In this document: in pieces, positions 1 through 6,840 of the stretch
Layout: each line of letters opens with the position of its first letter
Numbering within the stretch: the first letter of the stretch is position 1
DNA from: an uncultured Rivibacter sp.
GTDB lineage: Bacteria > Pseudomonadota > Gammaproteobacteria > Burkholderiales > Burkholderiaceae
NCBI GenBank assembly: GCA_946481025.1
Contig: CAMLNA010000074.1
Coordinates: forward strand, 1-20,858
DNA: 20,858 nt
Reading direction: 5' to 3'
Program-made: the position numbers and the translations under genes
Notes under the pieces: model-generated
The model's database searches: none
What the model was told of the DNA's origin: nothing
The model's input: only the letters and a program-made list of their open reading frames with translations

Positions 1-807
1 CACGATCCCCTGCCTGGCGGGGGTCTTGGCTGAGGCGTCGGCCATGCGCTTTGCCAATGCAGGTGCCTGGCCGCTGCGGTCTCGCAAGGGGTAGTTCAAC
101 TCGCGGCTGAAGCGCTCCCGCACCCCCTGCGCCATGAAGTCCGCCACGCCGAGCAGGTGCACCTCGTTGGCCTCCATCGCCATGGATACCGTGCGGCCCT
201 TGCCGACGTCGCCCTTGGCGGCGGCCTGCATGTCCACGCGGGTCATGCGCGCCGTGCGGCACCCGTCGGTGTCGTTCTTGAAGCGCTCACGCACGACCTT
301 GGTCCACCGGTGCCGGCTGAAGGCCACCCAGATCTGCGAATGGGCCGACGGATCGACGCAGAAGAACTGCGGGCCGATGTTGCTGTGCCCTTCGCGCTTG
401 CAGGCCACGCTGAGCTGCGTGCCGTCTGGCGTCTCGTCGAGGTCCTCGACCGGCATCTTGTTGAGCAGGCCGTCGACGCCCACCACGTAGGCGTCCCACA
501 CCATGTTGGACTTCAGCACGTAGAGGTAGCCCGCCGGCAGCACGCGCATGAAGTCCCACGACAGGGTGCGATCGGGGGTGGCCAGGCGCCCGTCGAGCGT
601 CTTCAAGGCCGCCGTTGCGGCGGCATCGGCGCGGTGCTTGTCGAACACCGAGCGCAGTGCCGGGCTGCCGGTCACAGGCAGGATGGCCAGGCCGGTCTTG
701 TGGCAGTTCTTGCAGTTGGAAGCTGACGCCCCCGAGCCCGAACCTGCAGCCTTGGCGATCTGCCCCTTGGCTTTCGGCTTCGGTGGGGCAATGGCGGTTT
801 CACCCAT
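1..807 (-). CDS. VasX-type T6SS effector, N-terminal part (runs off left edge)
   Basis: This open frame has no stop from its ATG at 807 to the window edge, so 269 N-terminal residues are visible. It matches the N-terminal region of VasX-type T6SS effectors: a short Ala/Lys/Ser-rich leader, then the cysteine motif C32-K-N-C35-H-K-T-G-L-A-I-L-P-V, then a conserved block containing GYLYVL, VVGVDGLL and the HSQIWVAFS segment at about residues 95-165. In this family the N-terminus is the delivery region bound by a DUF4123 adaptor, and the toxic part, often membrane-active, is C-terminal; that part is outside the window. The gene overlaps the DUF4123 stop by 8 bases. GGAGG lies 10 bases before the ATG at 807; the in-frame ATG at 816 lies almost on the Shine-Dalgarno and is less likely. 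Family assignment is strong, but the toxin activity and the immunity gene cannot be read here. Confidence 0.85.
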   Translation of the reverse strand, partial: MGETAIAPPKPKAKGQIAKAAGSGSGASASNCKNCHKTGLAILPVTGSPALRSVFDKHRADAAATAALKTLDGRLATPDRTLSWDFMRVLPAGYLYVLKSNMVWDAYVVGVDGLLNKMPVEDLDETPDGTQLSVACKREGHSNIGPQFFCVDPSAHSQIWVAFSRHRWTKVVRERFKNDTDGCRTARMTRVDMQAAAKGDVGKGRTVSMAMEANEVHLLGVADFMAQGVRERFSRELNYPLRDRSGQAPALAKRMADASAKTPARQGIV

Positions 808-1771
808 GATGTGCATTCCTCCCCTGGCTCGATAGCCAACGGCCATCGGCAATGGTTTCCAGTGTTGTTTCGTCCAGCGCCGCCGCGGCGTCGGCAAACG
901 ACTGCCCTGTGCTGCGACTGTTGGCAAGTGCTTGCGCAAACGCAGGATGTTCGTCGAAGCGCTCGTGCACGCACAGCGCGCAGGTCGCGAAGGTCATGCA
1001 GTCGGTGTCGGTGCGCAAGCCTGCCGCCTGGGCGCGAGCGAGCTGCGCGTCGAGCGCCAGGACCAGGTCATCGCCGGTGCGGTCCAGGCCCCAGTCGGCG
1101 GCTTGCGGCACCAGTTCGTTGACCCAGGCCATCCGGCCGAGCGCCGCCCACTGCGCGGCGTCAAAGCCCACCTCGGGCTTCGCCTGCAGCGGCACGCGCA
1201 AGGTTCTCAGTGAAAGATCGGGGCCGACGAAATGCCATGCGGCCACCGGCCCGAGCAGGTGGCGCAGCTGCCCCGGGCGAGCCAGGGCACTCAAACGCGC
1301 AAGGACACGTGGGTCGATGTAGCGCAACAACCTGCGCTCGCCCGACGGGCTTCTTGCCACGGAGGCATTGGCGATCAGCGCTGCCAACGCATCCCCGTCA
1401 AGGCCTTCTGCCGGCTGCGGGCTTCCGGCTGGCGCCACCTCGATCCAGCCGCAGACAGACCGGACCTGCCTTGCCTGGCCCACATTGCCCAATGCCTCTT
1501 CCATCGCCAGCCGCACCGTGCGGTTCAACAAGCGCTCGGCTCGGCGCTCATCGTTCAGCCACAACAAGTACGGCATGCGCTCGGCGGCAAGGTCGTCGTG
1601 CCGGATATGCACCACGTGCATGGAAGCCTCATCCGACGGCAGCACATCTTCGAGCGGGTCGGTGACCGCGCGGTCGATGATCACCGCCACCGGCGACGAA
1701 GCATCGCCGCGTGCCAACGCCGCACGCAAGGCGGCAATGCCGGCATCGGTCAGTTCATCGATCGAACGCAT
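800..1771 (-). CDS. DUF4123 T6SS effector adaptor (Tap/TEC type)
   Basis: The 323-residue product looks like a DUF4123-domain protein. The domain covers roughly residues 25-150 and beyond: it includes SPVAVIIDRAV and HVVHIRHDD near the start and the typical LLRYIDPRVLARL segment near residue 150. A helical C-terminal half follows. DUF4123 proteins are cytoplasmic chaperones that bind a specific effector and dock it on the VgrG C-terminal extension before firing. The neighbours fit: the VasX-type effector starts inside this gene's last codons, giving translational coupling, and a free DUF2345 protein is encoded 15 bases upstream. The ATG at 1771 has GGAGG 9 bases upstream. There is no signal peptide. 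A different fold is unlikely given the motif and context. Confidence 0.88.
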   Translation of the reverse strand: MRSIDELTDAGIAALRAALARGDASSPVAVIIDRAVTDPLEDVLPSDEASMHVVHIRHDDLAAERMPYLLWLNDERRAERLLNRTVRLAMEEALGNVGQARQVRSVCGWIEVAPAGSPQPAEGLDGDALAALIANASVARSPSGERRLLRYIDPRVLARLSALARPGQLRHLLGPVAAWHFVGPDLSLRTLRVPLQAKPEVGFDAAQWAALGRMAWVNELVPQAADWGLDRTGDDLVLALDAQLARAQAAGLRTDTDCMTFATCALCVHERFDEHPAFAQALANSRSTGQSFADAAAALDETTLETIADGRWLSSQGRNAHHG

Positions 1772-1786: not shown

Positions 1787-2434
1787 TCAGACGATGGCAG
1801 CGCCGGTGGAGGCCGCATCGCCCAGGCGCGCAGCACACCCCTTCAACTCCCCCGCCTTCGGCAGGCTCAAGCTTGCACTCGCGCTCCCCGCCCCCGCCAG
1901 CTCCTTCATCGCCGCCTTGAAGCTCGCCGTTCCGCTGGTGCCCAACTCGATGTTGCCGCCCTCGATCTTGAGATAGGTGCCGCCGCCGGTCAGCAGGATG
2001 CTGTTGGGCGCGCTGATGGTGATGCCGGCGCTCGTGCTCGCGATCGTCACTGCCTTGTCGGCATTGAGCTGCGCCTTCGCGCTTTGCGCCTGCGCGCTCA
2101 CCTTGCCGCTGGCGGCATGCAGCTTCATGCCCACGTCCTGCACGCTGCGCTGCGTGTCCTGGGCCTTGCCGTAGGTGAACAGGGCGATGCCGTCCTTCAC
2201 CGCCACGGCCTGGTTTCGCTGCGTGTTGAGGTTGGCGTCCTGCCCGGCCACCAGGCTCAGCGTCTGGCCGGCGCTGGCCAGGGCGCTGGCCGGGGTGTAG
2301 GCGCCGATGCCGCCCGCGCCTGCGAGCACGAGGTCGGGCTTCGAGAAGACGGGGATGGTGCCGCCTCCGCCGCCGATGCCGAACTCGCCGGTGACGTTGG
2401 GGGTGGAGGGGATGGTTTTCTTCGATTCGCTCAT
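1787..2434 (-). CDS. Stand-alone DUF2345 protein (detached VgrG C-terminal beta-prism)
   Basis: The 215-residue product has no VgrG core but resembles the C-terminal DUF2345 region of Burkholderiales VgrGs. A Gly-rich leader (about 15-25) and the strand FSKPDLVLAGAGGIGAYTPA lead into repeated short beta strands: QTLSLVAGQDANLN at about 57-70, DGIALFTYGKA at 81-91, KLHAASGKVSAQAQ at 104-117, and GGGTYLKIEGGNIELGT at about 150-166. A tail containing KGCAARLGDAASTGAAIV resembles the extreme C-terminus of VgrGs, the part DUF4123 adaptors dock on. The start overlaps the preceding stop as ATGA. The VgrG upstream lacks exactly this domain. It may associate with the spike in trans or act as a docking platform for the DUF4123/VasX pair; this role is inferred. 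A decayed VgrG remnant is possible, but the frame is intact and coupled to its neighbours. Confidence 0.82.
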   Translation of the reverse strand: MSESKKTIPSTPNVTGEFGIGGGGGTIPVFSKPDLVLAGAGGIGAYTPASALASAGQTLSLVAGQDANLNTQRNQAVAVKDGIALFTYGKAQDTQRSVQDVGMKLHAASGKVSAQAQSAKAQLNADKAVTIASTSAGITISAPNSILLTGGGTYLKIEGGNIELGTSGTASFKAAMKELAGAGSASASLSLPKAGELKGCAARLGDAASTGAAIV

Positions 2435-2820
2435 GAGTTGCTCCCTGCAGAGGGCGATGCGCAGGCGGCGCGGTCCCAGATGCCGGCCTTCTCGTCCCAG
2501 CGCACTTCGTGAACGCGCGGCACGCCTGCGGCACTACGAATCACGCAGAACTCGGCGGTGTACGCGAAGGTGGGGTCGCCCGGGTCCTTCACTCGCGCCC
2601 CGAGTCCCACGGTGTACAGGCGGCCGAACTGCAGCGCAGGCGGGGAAGTGTGTGCCACGGACTGCCCAGGCACTTCGCCGTAGCGCAGGCACTGCCCTGG
2701 GAGGAAAGGAACAGGCTTCTCCAGCGTGAACGACCGGGTGGTTTCGTACCCACGACCGCCCTGCGTCTCGATGCGAGGCCCCAAAAGTTCCGGATCGCCC
2801 ATCCGCGTTGCCACCGGCAC
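2431..2820 (-). CDS. Small paralogue of the upstream lipoprotein, without signal peptide
   Basis: The frame stays open upstream through the neighbouring gene, but its protein-like part begins near a GTG at 2820, just after the preceding stop (2822). GGAGG lies about 8 bases before that GTG, giving 129 residues. The product is clearly homologous to the lipoprotein encoded directly upstream: both share G-Q-C-x-x-Y-G, then G-R-hydrophobic-Y-x-V, then Y-T-A-x-F-C. The two main cysteines are 48 residues apart in both (C44 and C92 here), and a third lies near the C-terminus (C120). Unlike its paralogue it has no signal peptide or lipobox and lacks the first part of the domain. It may be a cytoplasmic partner, a truncated duplicate, or the second domain of a two-domain lipoprotein broken by a frameshift. 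A role in immunity to the VgrG metallopeptidase is inferred from position only. Confidence 0.6.
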   Translation of the reverse strand: MPVATRMGDPELLGPRIETQGGRGYETTRSFTLEKPVPFLPGQCLRYGEVPGQSVAHTSPPALQFGRLYTVGLGARVKDPGDPTFAYTAEFCVIRSAAGVPRVHEVRWDEKAGIWDRAACASPSAGSNS

Positions 2821-2821
2821 G

Positions 2822-3349
2822 TCATCGCCCTCCGCTGTGTACCGGGGGCTCCAGGGGGCCGCAAGCCGCAGCCTGCAACTTGCCCTCCTTGCGCTCCACC
2901 GGCAGCACACGCGCTGAAGCGCCGGCTTCCCGCACCATGCAGAAGTGAGCCGTGTACAGATGAACCGGCTCACTCGCGTCTTCGACAACGGCGTTGACCA
3001 TGACGGAGTAGATGCGCCCGGGGGCCAACGGCTGCGGAGCCTTGAGCACCTGGCCCTCCGGCAGTGAGGCACCGTACTGAACGCACTGCCCCACGGGCAA
3101 TGGAACTCTCGGTGCGGCAGGCGCAACCATCGCCCGCCATACCGGGCTGCCCTTTCCCTCGCCTTCCGCGATGGACACGGAAACGGCTTGCAGCTGCGGA
3201 TTGCCTTCTCGTGTCGCGCGGGTGCTTGCGACGCCGAAGCACGGAAGCTCCGCGCGTTGAGTGACCACCGCCGTACCCATGCCCGAACGAGCGGCACAGC
3301 CACTCGCCAGCAGCGACAGCAACAGCAGCGCCAGGAAGCTCTTGTTCAT
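2822..3349 (-). CDS. Predicted lipoprotein, candidate immunity protein to VgrG metallopeptidase
   Basis: This encodes a 175-residue lipoprotein. Residues 1-18 form a lipoprotein signal peptide with a short charged start, a Leu-rich core and the lipobox A-S-G-C18. Alanine at +2 favours outer-membrane sorting by the usual Lol rule. The mature part has cysteines at 37, 89, 137 and 163; those at 89 and 137 sit in GQCVQYG and HFCMVRE and could form disulfides in the periplasm. The ATG at 3349 has GGAGA upstream; an open stretch further upstream is non-coding in character. The gene follows the VgrG stop by 19 bases. Pseudomonas VgrG2b, which carries a similar C-terminal peptidase, acts in the periplasm, so a periplasmic lipoprotein next to this VgrG is a plausible cognate immunity protein. 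I do not recognise a named family, and this role is inferred. Confidence 0.72.
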   Translation of the reverse strand: MNKSFLALLLLSLLASGCAARSGMGTAVVTQRAELPCFGVASTRATREGNPQLQAVSVSIAEGEGKGSPVWRAMVAPAAPRVPLPVGQCVQYGASLPEGQVLKAPQPLAPGRIYSVMVNAVVEDASEPVHLYTAHFCMVREAGASARVLPVERKEGKLQAAACGPLEPPVHSGGR

Positions 3350-3368
3350 GCCTGTTCTCCACACCCTT

Positions 3369-6300
3369 TCAGGAGCCACCCGGCAAGCTCGACCTGTCGG
3401 CAGGATCAGCAAGGAAGGTCTTGAGCGTGTACTGCTCGTAGTCACTCAAGGCGTTGGCGTATCGCTGCTGCCGCATCACCGTGGGGTCGCCAAGCACCTT
3501 CAGGGCGAAGTAGTCGGCCACGATGTCGCCCTGTGCTTCCATGTTGTAGTCAGCCAGGGTCTTGTCGTGGGCGAGTTGGTATGCGTAGGAAAGCCCGATC
3601 CGGATGGCGCCTCTGAGCTTCACCGGATAGTCGAGCTGGTACTGCCATACGTGAACCATCTCGTGCATGAACCAGTGCTTGTCCGCCGAGTCCTCCTTGG
3701 AGAAGTCTTCCTTGAAGTAGTCCGGGTTGAAATACATCTCCCCGTTCGGCGTCATCGCGGTGTTGTCCGGCTGCAGCCCGAACCAAAGGTATTCGCCGTT
3801 GTGGACCTTCACCTTCGAATAGTCGATCGAGTCCTTGAAGATCACCTTCGCCATGGCGATCTCGCCGGGTGTCATCGGGCGGGCCTTGCCCTTGGGCGTT
3901 TGCACCTGCACCACCGAAGCCCCCAGGTTCTGCGGGTTGGTGGCCACGCCGCTGATGGGCACCACCAGCGCAGCGGCCGAAGTGGAGCCGGCCTGTTGCG
4001 CATGCGCGGTGCAGCAGGACTCCAGCGGCCTGGGGCTCAGCTTCGCTTCGACGATGGGCTGTGCCTGGGCGGTCACGACCCGCTGCGTCAAGCCCTGCGC
4101 ATCGGTCTGCCCGGTCTCCACGCTGCCGTCGGCCAGCTTCAGCTCGTAGGCCACGTTGGCCAGCGGCGTTCCCTTGGCATTGAGGAACTGGATCTGCTCG
4201 TCGAACGACGTCGCCTCTTCCGACGCTTCGGAGCCTTCGGCCTCTGACGCCGCGCCCGCTGCGGCAGCCGTGGCCAGCGCGAGCGTGTCCACGGCCTGCA
4301 GCACTTCGAGCATGCCCGCCATGCCCTCGGCCACCGGCAGCTTCTCGGGCTCCGGCTCGCTGCCGATCCTGGCCTGGTGCTGCTGCGCCGCCTTGGCCAA
4401 TGCCAGCTGCAGCTCGCGGCTGGCGTCGAGCTGGGTCTGCGTTTCGCGCGTGTCCAGCTGCTGGGCCGAACCGGTGCTGGCCTGCCGGCCGTGGGTGCTG
4501 ATCAGCAGTCCGCTGCCGGCACGCAGTGCGCCGTAGGCGCTGGTGAACAGCTCCGCGCCATGCCCCTGGTGCTGCAGCCGCTGGTTGTCGCGCTGGTACA
4601 GCAGGTGCCCCAGCTGCAGGCGGCTGTTCGCGGTGCTGGTGGCCAGCAGCACGCGTGCCTCGCCCGGGCTCGCGTCGAAGACCAGCTGGTTGGCGCCGCC
4701 GGTGCCGCTCGCACTGGCGCTGACCTCCTGCGTCTTGAAGCCCACCTGCACCGCGTTGTGCTGGTGGCCTTGCAGCGCGCCGCTCCTGGCATCACCCGGA
4801 AACCACGCAGGCGCGTTGCCGGTGCTGCCGGCAGCACCGCCCGCCGCCTGGTTGCCCTGGGCATTGGCCTGGCCCACACCGTTGTAGACGCTGCCCACCA
4901 CCACCGGGCGGTCGATGTCGCCCTCGAGGAACTCGACCACCACTTCCTGCCCGGCACGCGGCGTGAACACGCTGCCCCAGTTGGCGCCGGCCAGCGGCGT
5001 GGCCACGCGCACCCAGGTGCCCGCGCGGTCGTTGGCGGGGGCGTTGTCGTCGCCGCCCTCGTCGGCCAGGCGGTGGCTGGCCTGGCCGCCGCGCTGCCAA
5101 TGGAACTGGACCTTGATGCGGTGGTCGCGGTCGGTGTGGATGGGGGCGCCGTCGCTCACCACGATGGCCGTCTGCGTGCCGTGTACCGCCGGCCGGGGCA
5201 GCAGCGTGGTGAGCTCATGCACGTGGGCGGCTCCTTGCACGTCGAGCCCCAGCGCCCGCACCGGCAGCTCGGCCGGCAAGGCCACCAGGTCGCACTCATA
5301 CAGCGGCGTGTCTTCTTCGCGCGGTGCCGCCAGACCCAGCAGCCTGGCGATGCCGGCCTGGGCGTCGGCCGCGAGGTTGTTGCGCGCGCGATGGCGCACG
5401 GCCATGACGGTGTAGCGGCCGCCGGCGCTGGCGTGTTCGGCCAGCTCGAAGGTGGTGGCAGGCGCCGCCATGCGGAAGCCGCCGCGCGCCTCGCACAGGC
5501 GGGCCGCGGCGTCGAGCGTCTGCTGCTGGCGCTGGGCGATGCGTTCGCCCTGTTCGCGGGTTTCGTAGACATACACGCCGGGCAGGTCGCGGCGCACCAG
5601 AGGCGGCAGGCCGGCCGCCGCCGCGCCATCGGCGCGCACCGGGCGCAGCGCGTTCTGGCGGTAGTCCCAGCTCTGCAGTTCGATGGCCGCGGTGGTGACC
5701 TGCGCGGTGGCGCCCCAGCGGGTGAGGGTGTCTTCCTTGAAGCTGGCACCGCTTTGCGCAAAGCGCACGCGGGCCTGGGCACCCGGCTTCACGGCGCCGT
5801 TGTGGTCGGCGATCACCAGGGTGTGCACGCCCAGGCTTTCGCTGGTGGCGTCGCCCTGGTGCTCGAACCAGGCGAACAGGCCTTCTTCGGCGAGCAGGCG
5901 CAACACGAAGGCGAGGTCGCTTTCCTGGTACTGCGTGACGAGGCTGCGCTGCGGATACACGCCGGCATCGGCGAATTCGAAGCGCCAGGCCGCGGCCAGC
6001 TTGCCGTGCGCCTGGTAGCGGCCGAACACCGCCTCCAGCACTTCGGGCACGGTCATGCCCTGGAAGCTGCGGCTGTCGGTGCGATGGGCCAGCAGCGCGA
6101 GCCACGGCTCGACCACGAGCCGGTAGCGCGCGAGGCCACCATCGCTGCCCAGCAGGCTGAATTGCGTGACGTGGCCGTGCCAGGGGCGGAGCGCGGTTCG
6201 GCTCGCGCCGGTCAGCAGCTCCAGCAGGACGGGTTGGCCGATGAGCTGCTTCAGCTCGTGGTGGGTGCTGGTGGACAGCGCGGTGAGTTCAAGCCGGAAG

Positions 6301-6455
6301 CCCGCATGGCCGGTGGCGGGTGCCACCGCTTCAACCCCGTCCAGCGTTTCGGCCAGCAGCACGTTGGGGCCCAGCGGCGTATGCAGGCGCAGCAGCCGCT
6401 CGTGCTGCACGGGGCCGCCGAACAGGCTGGCCAGGAGCGCGACGTCAAGCTTCAT
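3369..6455 (-). CDS. vgrG: Evolved VgrG (TssI) spike with C-terminal zinc-metallopeptidase domain
   Basis: The 1028-residue trimeric spike protein begins with the gp27-like core (about 1-400). The gp5-like OB domain follows, with HRIKVQFHWQR near 445-455 and WVRVATPLAGANWGSVFTPR at about 481-500, then EVVVEFLEGDIDRPVVVGSVYN near 504-525. The T6SS Vgr domain lies at about 588-655. A low-complexity Ala/Glu linker (about 700-750) replaces the usual DUF2345. A transthyretin-like segment sits at about 751-800, and the C-terminal domain contains H931-E-M-V-H935 followed by E973 in NMEAQGD, the signature of a zinc metallopeptidase. Architecture and length are close to Pseudomonas VgrG2b, a periplasm-acting toxin. 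The ATG at 6455 (AGGGA upstream) is preferred to a TTG at 6470; it overlaps the preceding stop by 11 bases. Spike assignment is certain; peptidase activity rests on the motif. Confidence 0.95.
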   Translation of the reverse strand: MKLDVALLASLFGGPVQHERLLRLHTPLGPNVLLAETLDGVEAVAPATGHAGFRLELTALSTSTHHELKQLIGQPVLLELLTGASRTALRPWHGHVTQFSLLGSDGGLARYRLVVEPWLALLAHRTDSRSFQGMTVPEVLEAVFGRYQAHGKLAAAWRFEFADAGVYPQRSLVTQYQESDLAFVLRLLAEEGLFAWFEHQGDATSESLGVHTLVIADHNGAVKPGAQARVRFAQSGASFKEDTLTRWGATAQVTTAAIELQSWDYRQNALRPVRADGAAAAGLPPLVRRDLPGVYVYETREQGERIAQRQQQTLDAAARLCEARGGFRMAAPATTFELAEHASAGGRYTVMAVRHRARNNLAADAQAGIARLLGLAAPREEDTPLYECDLVALPAELPVRALGLDVQGAAHVHELTTLLPRPAVHGTQTAIVVSDGAPIHTDRDHRIKVQFHWQRGGQASHRLADEGGDDNAPANDRAGTWVRVATPLAGANWGSVFTPRAGQEVVVEFLEGDIDRPVVVGSVYNGVGQANAQGNQAAGGAAGSTGNAPAWFPGDARSGALQGHQHNAVQVGFKTQEVSASASGTGGANQLVFDASPGEARVLLATSTANSRLQLGHLLYQRDNQRLQHQGHGAELFTSAYGALRAGSGLLISTHGRQASTGSAQQLDTRETQTQLDASRELQLALAKAAQQHQARIGSEPEPEKLPVAEGMAGMLEVLQAVDTLALATAAAAGAASEAEGSEASEEATSFDEQIQFLNAKGTPLANVAYELKLADGSVETGQTDAQGLTQRVVTAQAQPIVEAKLSPRPLESCCTAHAQQAGSTSAAALVVPISGVATNPQNLGASVVQVQTPKGKARPMTPGEIAMAKVIFKDSIDYSKVKVHNGEYLWFGLQPDNTAMTPNGEMYFNPDYFKEDFSKEDSADKHWFMHEMVHVWQYQLDYPVKLRGAIRIGLSYAYQLAHDKTLADYNMEAQGDIVADYFALKVLGDPTVMRQQRYANALSDYEQYTLKTFLADPADRSSLPGGS

Positions 6456-6840
6456 GCTGGATCCCTGCAAGCAGAGGAGACGCCGCCGCGAGCAGGAACA
6501 CGCGCTGCAGCTGCAAGGGGTCGCGGCGCAACACCAGGCAGTGGCGCTGCCCGGCGGCCACCACCGGCAGCAGCAGCTCGCCGGAGCCGGGCGAAGGCTC
6601 GGCCGGCTCGACGCTCCAGCGCGACGACTGCATGAGCTGCAGCAGGCGCTGCGAGCTCACCGCCGCCTGCGGCGTTGGCGACAGCAACACCTGGACCGCC
6701 AGCGCGGACCAGGAGTCCGCCATGCTGCCAAGCGCCTTCAGCTGGCCCGCGGCCGCGGGCCAATGGGCCGAGGCGCTGTTCGCCAGCACGGCGTCGGCAA
6801 GGCGCTGCTGCGCGGTTTTCGAATCGTTCTGGTCGCTCAT
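6445..6840 (-). CDS. Uncharacterised 131-aa protein between clpV and vgrG
   Basis: I do not recognise this family. The 131-residue product has no signal peptide or clear membrane segment. Residues 1-60 look helical (AQQRLADAVLANSAS, then a Leu/Ala-rich stretch). Residues 70-130 alternate hydrophobic strands such as GELLLPVV and HCLVLRRD, ending in a hydrophobic Leu/Ala-rich segment. The ATG at 6840 has GGGAGA about 8 bases upstream. It lies 37 bases after clpV and its last codons overlap the vgrG start, so the two genes are probably translationally coupled. Position and coupling suggest a spike-loading, assembly or accessory function for this VgrG. Codon and GC usage match its neighbours, which supports a real gene. 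Confidence 0.72.
   Translation of the reverse strand: MSDQNDSKTAQQRLADAVLANSASAHWPAAAGQLKALGSMADSWSALAVQVLLSPTPQAAVSSQRLLQLMQSSRWSVEPAEPSPGSGELLLPVVAAGQRHCLVLRRDPLQLQRVFLLAAASPLLAGIQHEA

What the first reader, a model, noticed from the sequence alone, without database searches (positions are those of the whole stretch)
1787..6455. Split VgrG: spike without DUF2345 and a free DUF2345 protein four genes along
Seen: the VgrG ends its Vgr domain near residue 655 and goes through an Ala/Glu linker into a transthyretin-like segment and a metallopeptidase, with no DUF2345. A 215-aa gene at 1787-2434 carries that beta-prism region plus a VgrG-like C-terminal tail. The two pieces look complementary. 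Inference: a cassette (linker, peptidase, stop, two lipoprotein-family genes) was inserted in an ancestral VgrG and displaced its C-terminus, which now works in trans or as a separate docking platform.
Basis: partly seen in the sequence, partly recalled or inferred. Interest (0 to 1): 0.75.

Follow-up and report, generated by a model that had tools for sequence, protein, structure and literature searches.

The report
Toxin wedge splits a T6SS spike
In this bacterium the protein spike of a type VI secretion weapon has been cut in two by a toxin-and-immunity cassette, leaving the spike's end piece as a separate protein; the same cut appears several times in related bacteria, so a known spike seems to gain a second toxin without losing its first.

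Summary
The VgrG (3369-6455, minus) has gp27, OB and T6SS_Vgr domains, then a linker, a transthyretin-like part and a VgrG2b-type metallopeptidase, but no DUF2345. A 215-aa gene (1787-2434) is a free DUF2345. Relatives at the same T6SS site carry one full-length VgrG that the two pieces tile without overlap (window pieces: L026 residues 13-762 and 770-937), followed by the same effector types. So the metallopeptidase and immunity genes lie as a wedge between shaft and tip. DUF2345-less VgrG bodies fall in at least four places of the tree, and free DUF2345s fall in matching neighbourhoods; one origin is rejected for each half. Five of 11 such VgrGs share an exact contig length with a free DUF2345. 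One body is 98% identical to an unsplit VgrG, so exchange looks recent. Free DUF2345 genes are already published, with co-IP evidence that one bridges VgrG and toxin; insertion of effector modules into vgrG is published too. New, as far as my five paper searches show, are the wedge arrangement, its recurrence, and a shared N-terminal leader on freed tips. Docking in trans on this VgrG and dual cargo are inferred, not shown.

The parts
3369..6455 (-). VgrG (TssI) without DUF2345, with C-terminal transthyretin-like part and metallopeptidase, 1028 aa
   Evidence: Pfam, NCBIfam TIGR03361, PDB 6h56 match
4386..4703 (-). T6SS_Vgr domain, VgrG residues 585-690
   Evidence: PF13296 E 1e-26
4209..4385 (-). 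linker, residues 691-749; the seam where similarity to unsplit VgrGs ends
   Evidence: alignments to L026, L016, L033, L021
3975..4193 (-). transthyretin-like segment, residues 755-827
   Evidence: profile made here from VgrG relatives; overlaps the 6h56 match
3396..3878 (-). metallopeptidase domain, residues 860-1020, HExxH at 931-935 (3651-3665)
2822..3349 (-). probable immunity lipoprotein 1 (175 aa)
   Evidence: position directly behind the metallopeptidase as in VgrG2b-PA0261; 57% identical to the L001 gene; weak NCBIfam 'putative T6SS immunity periplasmic lipoprotein' E 0.0038, under its cut-off
2431..2820 (-). second immunity-like frame, 5' part with signal peptide missing
   Evidence: 77% identical over 127 residues to L001's 187-aa frame, 130 nt fewer at the 5' end
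1787..2434 (-). free DUF2345 protein (215 aa), the displaced VgrG tip
   Evidence: PF10106 E 2.4e-41; aligns to L026 VgrG 770-937; dN/dS 0.12
2378..2434 (-). N-terminal leader of the free DUF2345 (residues 1-19, with IPSTPNV)
   Evidence: leader pattern in 55 of 122 complete-looking DUF2345 proteins with short N-termini, 0 of 70 fused
800..1771 (-). DUF4123-like adaptor (323 aa)
   Evidence: PF13503 E 0.00072, under the curated cut-off; similar to the adaptor-position genes of L016, L031, L078 and L202
1..816 (-). second effector, N-terminal 272 aa, runs off the window
   Evidence: VasX_N E 1.5e-20; BTH_I2691 family E 5e-31, under its cut-off
6445..6840 (-). 131-aa protein between clpV and vgrG, function unknown
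   Evidence: no Pfam match; 92% identical in L001
6878..9613 (-). TssH/ClpV, marks the site for comparison
   Evidence: TIGR03345

Best explanation
This is a split T6SS spike. A toxin-immunity cassette (transthyretin-like part plus VgrG2b-type metallopeptidase, stop, immunity genes, and probably the start codon and leader of the next gene) sits between the VgrG shaft and its DUF2345 tip. Shown by sequence: the two pieces tile one protein of relatives, the DUF2345-less form recurs in several VgrG lineages, and the freed tip is under purifying selection. Inferred: the cassette enters by homologous recombination, with the conserved vgrG 5' part and the DUF2345 gene as the two homology arms; the shaft now carries the metallopeptidase covalently; three copies of the freed tip stack on the shaft's beta-prism, perhaps helped by the leader, and keep presenting the original cargo (here DUF4123-like adaptor plus VasX_N effector). 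One spike would then carry two different warheads.
For: Tiling: L001 VgrG aligns to L026 VgrG 13-761 and L001's free DUF2345 (residues 20-268) to 770-1017; the window's pieces align to 13-762 and 770-937. The next gene in L026 is a 65% identical homologue of L001's 932-aa effector. Same clpV site, unsplit: L016 and L202 with DUF4123-like adaptor and VasX_N effector behind, L026 and L203 with the 932-aa type (64-65%). Body tree: DUF2345-less VgrGs in at least four places, one clade rejected p-AU 1.3e-5. DUF2345 tree: free ones beside fused ones of the matching neighbourhoods, one clade rejected p-AU 1.1e-8. Exact contig-length matches for 5 of 11 DUF2345-less VgrGs against 0 of 23 fused ones, about 0.04 expected. 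Cassette moved between bodies: P0128 groups with P0129/P0131 (99/97), body-B cassettes as one clade rejected p-AU 0.004. P0131 agrees with unsplit L203 at 685 of 700 residues in fourteen 50-residue windows, then drops to 29 of 50 and 3 of 20. Published: a free DUF2345 binds VgrG and an M35 toxin, and VgrG2b without DUF2345 is not secreted (PMC10673891, one section read).
Against: In held whole genomes the arrangement was seen only in G001: the peptidase end rings in 22 of 399 order genomes and 9 of 399 family genomes, and outside G001 no matched frame exceeds 704 aa (the 704-aa one, G383, showed the peptidase but no VgrG domain in the 3.4 kb held). For group A body and tip point to different Aquabacterium relatives. 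Fused and split forms interleave, so loss of the cassette is as cheap as gain for single steps. The leader pattern was drawn after looking at the sequences and is short. No complex was modelled; the monomer model of the free tip was poor (pLDDT 51).
Confidence: 0.68

Rival explanations
1. The free DUF2345 belongs only to the downstream adaptor-VasX_N cargo module and docks on another VgrG of the cell; the metallopeptidase VgrG works without any DUF2345.
For: Free DUF2345 genes followed by an adaptor-position gene and a VasX_N effector, without a VgrG in the fetched stretch, exist (L017, L024, L025). M. rhizosphaerae has T6SS_Vgr plus DUF2345 frames, cut by contig ends, on two other contigs.
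Against: The stand-alone free DUF2345s lack the leader (0 of 4: L017, L020, L024, L025) that 7 of 7 free DUF2345s linked to a DUF2345-less VgrG have. Both halves of the split spikes fall in matching neighbourhoods. VgrG2b without DUF2345 is not secreted (PMC10673891).
Confidence: 0.2
2. The free DUF2345 is a leftover without a job, kept because it serves as the 3' homology arm for exchange.
For: It sits at the switch between conserved and swapped sequence: window and L001 agree to residue 191 and then carry different tails and effectors.
Against: dN/dS 0.12 over 185 codons; own start with overlap to the upstream stop, the same in L001; kept in several lineages.
Confidence: 0.07
3. Reverse direction: the split spike is older in these lineages and the unsplit VgrGs arose by loss of the cassette and fusion.
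For: Within clade C split and fused bodies interleave (P0129, L202, P0131, L203), which allows loss as well as gain.
Against: Fused forms dominate: of 25 listed matches of a free tip (P0158) in 24 of 399 family genomes, 22 lie in frames of 956-1447 aa, 2 at contig ends and 1 is G001's free gene; DUF2345 is fused in 23 of 35 peptidase-end hits.
Confidence: 0.12
4. Two unrelated modules lie side by side by chance, with no ancestral single protein.
For: DUF2345 tips and VgrG bodies do recombine; the window's body is nearest Aquabacterium A7-Y (L021, 62%) while its tip is nearest other Aquabacterium (L007, 64%).
Against: Tiling on L026 with the same downstream effector and the same clpV site; matching neighbourhoods of body and linked tip in groups C and D.
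Confidence: 0.05

Closest known systems
VgrG2b (PA0262) with immunity PA0261, P. aeruginosa (PMC6899460; passages read)
   Same: VgrG with transthyretin-like part and HExxH metallopeptidase, immunity gene directly behind; sequence match to 6h56
   Different: VgrG2b keeps DUF2345 inside the same protein; here it is a separate gene behind the immunity genes
Stand-alone DUF2345 of E. coli PAR, VgrG-DUF2345-M35 (PMC10673891; abstract, passages and one section read)
   Same: DUF2345 as its own gene next to a DUF2345-less VgrG, with a metallopeptidase that corresponds to that of VgrG2b; shown there to bind both
   Different: There VgrG, tip and toxin are three genes in that order; here the toxin is fused to the shaft, and the tip lies behind the immunity genes and before a second cargo effector
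Insertion of effector-immunity modules into vgrG-3 of V. cholerae (PMC5361080; passages read)
   Same: Effector-immunity module enters a vgrG gene by recombination and shifts older genes downstream
   Different: There the effector end is usually replaced and immunity genes are shifted; here a structural tip domain is displaced and kept as a gene under selection
EAEC VgrG (PDB 6sjl, 6sk0, 6ski)
   Same: Its residues 621-775 match the free DUF2345
   Different: DUF2345 is part of the VgrG chain there

Membership tests
VgrG / TssI | gp27-like and OB domains of the T6SS tip protein | tested here: met
   TIGR03361 306 bits over cut-off 186; PF05954, PF04717, PF13296
VgrG2b-type evolved VgrG (Tpe metallopeptidase) | C-terminal metallopeptidase domain with HExxH | tested here: met
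   6h56 E 1.3e-29; HExxH at 931-935
VgrG2b-type evolved VgrG (Tpe metallopeptidase) | DUF2345 between shaft and effector in the same protein | tested here: not met
   no PF10106 up to E 0.1; 12 of 35 peptidase-end hits, one of them a near-copy of the window's protein and one a fragment, also list none
VgrG2b-type evolved VgrG (Tpe metallopeptidase) | adjacent exported immunity protein | tested here: inconclusive
   a lipoprotein-like gene follows directly; no family match over cut-off
Stand-alone DUF2345 | DUF2345 domain as its own gene in a vgrG locus | tested here: met
   PF10106 E 2.4e-41, 215 aa
Stand-alone DUF2345 | binds VgrG and bridges a toxin to it | not testable with these tools
   shown for E. 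coli PAR in PMC10673891, not for this protein
VasX_N / BTH_I2691 cargo effectors with DUF4123 adaptor | VasX_N domain behind a DUF4123 gene | tested here: met
   VasX_N E 1.5e-20 over cut-off; the DUF4123 part is weak, E 0.00072 under cut-off
Effector-immunity module inserted into vgrG | unsplit relative at the same site with the rest in order | tested here: met
   L026, L016, L202, L203

The most novel reading that the evidence does not exclude
A mobile toxin-immunity wedge with a built-in restart (start codon and docking leader) repeatedly enters VgrG genes exactly between shaft and tip, using shaft and tip as its homology arms; it turns a one-piece trimeric spike into a two-piece one that assembles non-covalently through the leader and fires the fused toxin and the original cargo together. 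T6SS spikes would thus be modular along their axis, not only at their C-terminal end.
Probability: 0.4. Interest if true: 0.7.

Novelty: new variant of a known kind. Interest (0 to 1): 0.55.

Why it matters
It gives a natural, repeated experiment on whether the VgrG beta-prism must be one chain, and a way for a T6SS to add a warhead while keeping the one it has. It also makes DUF2345 directly testable as a docking tip: the same shaft exists without the tip (P0131) and with the tip fused (L203), bodies 98% identical. Effector prediction that assumes cargo is read from the VgrG C-terminus would mis-assign such loci.

Tried and rejected
A genome-wide split in M. rhizosphaerae looked likely (five short DUF2345 frames) and was dropped: four of them end at contig ends and two of those carry T6SS_Vgr in the same frame. 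Of the 17 stretches fetched to look at short DUF2345 frames, eight ended within about 1.3 kb of the match because the contig ends there. A single insertion inherited by descent was rejected (for the cassettes only weakly, p-AU 0.02). L031's 'free' DUF2345 is an almost identical 3' copy of its own vgrG with linker attached, not a leader-type free gene. Genomes of the genus of L026 held no peptidase match (0 of 11; the tool warns that such an empty answer shows little). Viral contigs gave 6 peptidase loci; my gene caller missed even the peptidase there, a scan of all frames found the peptidase in 6 of 6 and VgrG domains in none. Plasmids gave 53 records, all under 60% identity, not followed up. 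The AlphaFold monomer of the free tip was poor (pLDDT 51), so no fold search was made. Papers were searched five times; none of the listings showed the wedge arrangement by title or abstract, but only PMC10673891, PMC6899460 and PMC5361080 were opened and none was read whole.

Rows dropped before counts: P0121 (near-copy of the window's VgrG) from all trees and; P0122; P0127 (595-aa fragment) from the body trees; both L053 rows, L031's copy and the fused-peptidase rows. Searches used rows that I chose (25 free and 22 fused; 11 DUF2345-less and 20 fused). 86 of 208 DUF2345 hits (no clean start or long N-terminus) were dropped from the leader count. The contig lengths compared were typed and leave out part of the list; by eye none of the omitted lengths matches either. 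One search listed the best 120 of 340 hits.

Full report
What is there. The window holds a main T6SS cluster: TssG, TssF, TssE, Hcp, TssC, TssB, TssK, TssL and TssA were named by NCBIfam and ClpV/TssH. Behind clpV, on the minus strand, come a 131-aa protein, the VgrG, two immunity-like frames, the free DUF2345, a DUF4123-like adaptor and the start of a VasX_N effector. The VgrG has no DUF2345 up to E 0.1; its last 294 residues match the VgrG2b effector structure 6h56. The 215-aa protein is DUF2345 and matches the tip part of the EAEC VgrG structure.

Which organism. The genome is not held. The best relative found is Methylibium rhizosphaerae C1-9 (L001): 90.9% DNA identity over 9.5 kb, with the same gene order from clpV as far as the free DUF2345.

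Do the two pieces tile one protein? Yes. In Rhizobacter sp. MAG_54 (L026) a single 1018-aa VgrG follows clpV. L001's VgrG aligns to its residues 13-761 and L001's free protein to 770-1017; the window's pieces align to 13-762 and 770-937. The next gene in L026 is 65% identical to L001's 932-aa effector. In Albitalea terrae (L016) an unsplit VgrG at the same site is followed by a DUF4123 adaptor and a VasX_N effector, the same kinds of gene that follow the window's free DUF2345. Two further unsplit loci show the same two alternatives behind a clpV that is 80% identical to the window's: L202 (weak DUF4123 match, then a 1051-aa VasX_N protein) and L203 (transthyretin-like end, then a 64% identical homologue of L001's effector). 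So there are two joints: one between linker and DUF2345, where the peptidase cassette lies, and one behind DUF2345, where cargo modules are swapped (window against L001).

Is it one event? No. Of 35 relatives of the peptidase end, 12 list no DUF2345 and 23 do. In the body tree of 91 rows the 12 DUF2345-less rows (two of them the window and L001) fall in at least four places: A with the window; B (P0124, P0128, P0136) near Ideonella and Albitalea; C (P0129, P0131, P0142) with Rhizobacter; D (P0126, P0135) beside Oxalobacteraceae. A careful tree of 31 chosen rows rejects one clade, p-AU 1.3e-5. In the DUF2345 trees the free proteins form groups beside fused DUF2345s of matching neighbourhoods; one clade of 25 chosen free rows is rejected, p-AU 1.1e-8. 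For A the match is looser: its body is nearest Aquabacterium A7-Y and its tip nearest other Aquabacterium.

Are the halves physically together outside Methylibium? Contigs of the metagenome proteins could not be read. Six of the 11 have no match. The matched tips fall where the bodies predict in C and D: P0158, matched to P0129, sits with L026, and P0161, P0168 and P0183 sit in the group beside Oxalobacteraceae and Zoogloeaceae.

How does it move? The peptidase cassettes do not follow the bodies: P0128 (body B) groups with P0129 and P0131 (body C), 99/97, and one clade for body-B cassettes is rejected, p-AU 0.004; one clade for all DUF2345-less cassettes is rejected only weakly, p-AU 0.02. P0131's body agrees with the unsplit L203 at 685 of 700 residues in fourteen windows of 50, then falls to 29 of 50 inside the linker and 3 of 20 behind it. 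This fits exchange by homologous recombination in the conserved shaft; the DUF2345 gene would be the other arm. That last step is inference.

The leader. Free DUF2345s of all four groups share a short N-terminal stretch such as TIPSTPNVT before the first glycines of the domain. The pattern is in 55 of 122 complete-looking proteins and in 0 of 70 fused VgrG frames; it is in 7 of 7 free proteins linked to a DUF2345-less VgrG and in 0 of 4 stand-alone ones. The pattern was drawn after looking, the rows are related, and the 122 include some VgrG fragments. It may be the 3' end of the cassette or a docking peptide, or both.

Is the freed tip alive? Its start overlaps the upstream stop in window and L001, and dN/dS is 0.12 over 185 codons. 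The second immunity frame, in contrast, lacks its 5' part in the window, while L001 has a longer, lipoprotein-like copy.

What is known. Stand-alone DUF2345 genes were reported in 2023, with an E. coli locus in which VgrG, DUF2345 and an M35 peptidase are three genes, co-IP showing the DUF2345 between the other two, and VgrG2b lacking DUF2345 failing to be secreted (PMC10673891). The window's VgrG is in effect a natural VgrG2b without DUF2345, so a tip in trans is expected if the rule holds here. Module insertion into vgrG-3 was reported in V. cholerae (PMC5361080). I therefore call this a new variant of a known kind.

Against it. In held genomes the wedge was found only in G001, although those searches saw samples of 399 genomes each. 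The interleaving of split and fused forms also allows loss of the cassette. Docking and dual cargo were not tested, and the tip's monomer model was poor.

Noticed in passing
window 2431-2820: The second immunity-like frame lacks its signal-peptide end relative to L001, so the window may rely on the first immunity gene alone.
   Followed up: partly
L059 8650-10804 and L073 1-1258 (Dechloromonas denitrificans): In two loci a gp27-like frame (444 aa, or cut by the contig end) is followed by an overlapping 283- or 294-aa DUF2345 frame, with no OB or Vgr domain found between; either another kind of split VgrG or decay.
   Followed up: no
L017, L024 around 10000 and L025 around 4000: Free DUF2345 followed by a roughly 300-aa gene at the adaptor's place (no DUF4123 Pfam match; L024 and L025 resemble the window's adaptor over about 90 residues) and a roughly 830-aa VasX_N effector, with no VgrG domain in the fetched stretch: cargo modules that carry their own tip.
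   Followed up: partly
window 6445-6840: 131-aa protein overlapping the vgrG start, without Pfam match; a 111-aa gene sits at the same place in L016.
   Followed up: no
L001 10851-13649: 932-aa effector without Pfam match, swapped for the adaptor-VasX_N module between L001 and the window; homologues at the same place in L026 (65%) and L203 (64%).
   Followed up: partly
L204-L209 (viral contigs): VgrG2b-like metallopeptidase genes in six contigs of the viral collection, some with phage-like neighbours by eye; no VgrG domain found in all frames of the stretches held.
   Followed up: partly
L031 9797-10588 (Ideonella sp. MAG2): A second, almost identical 3' end of the upstream vgrG, linker included, placed before another DUF4123-like gene and a VasX_N gene.
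   Followed up: no
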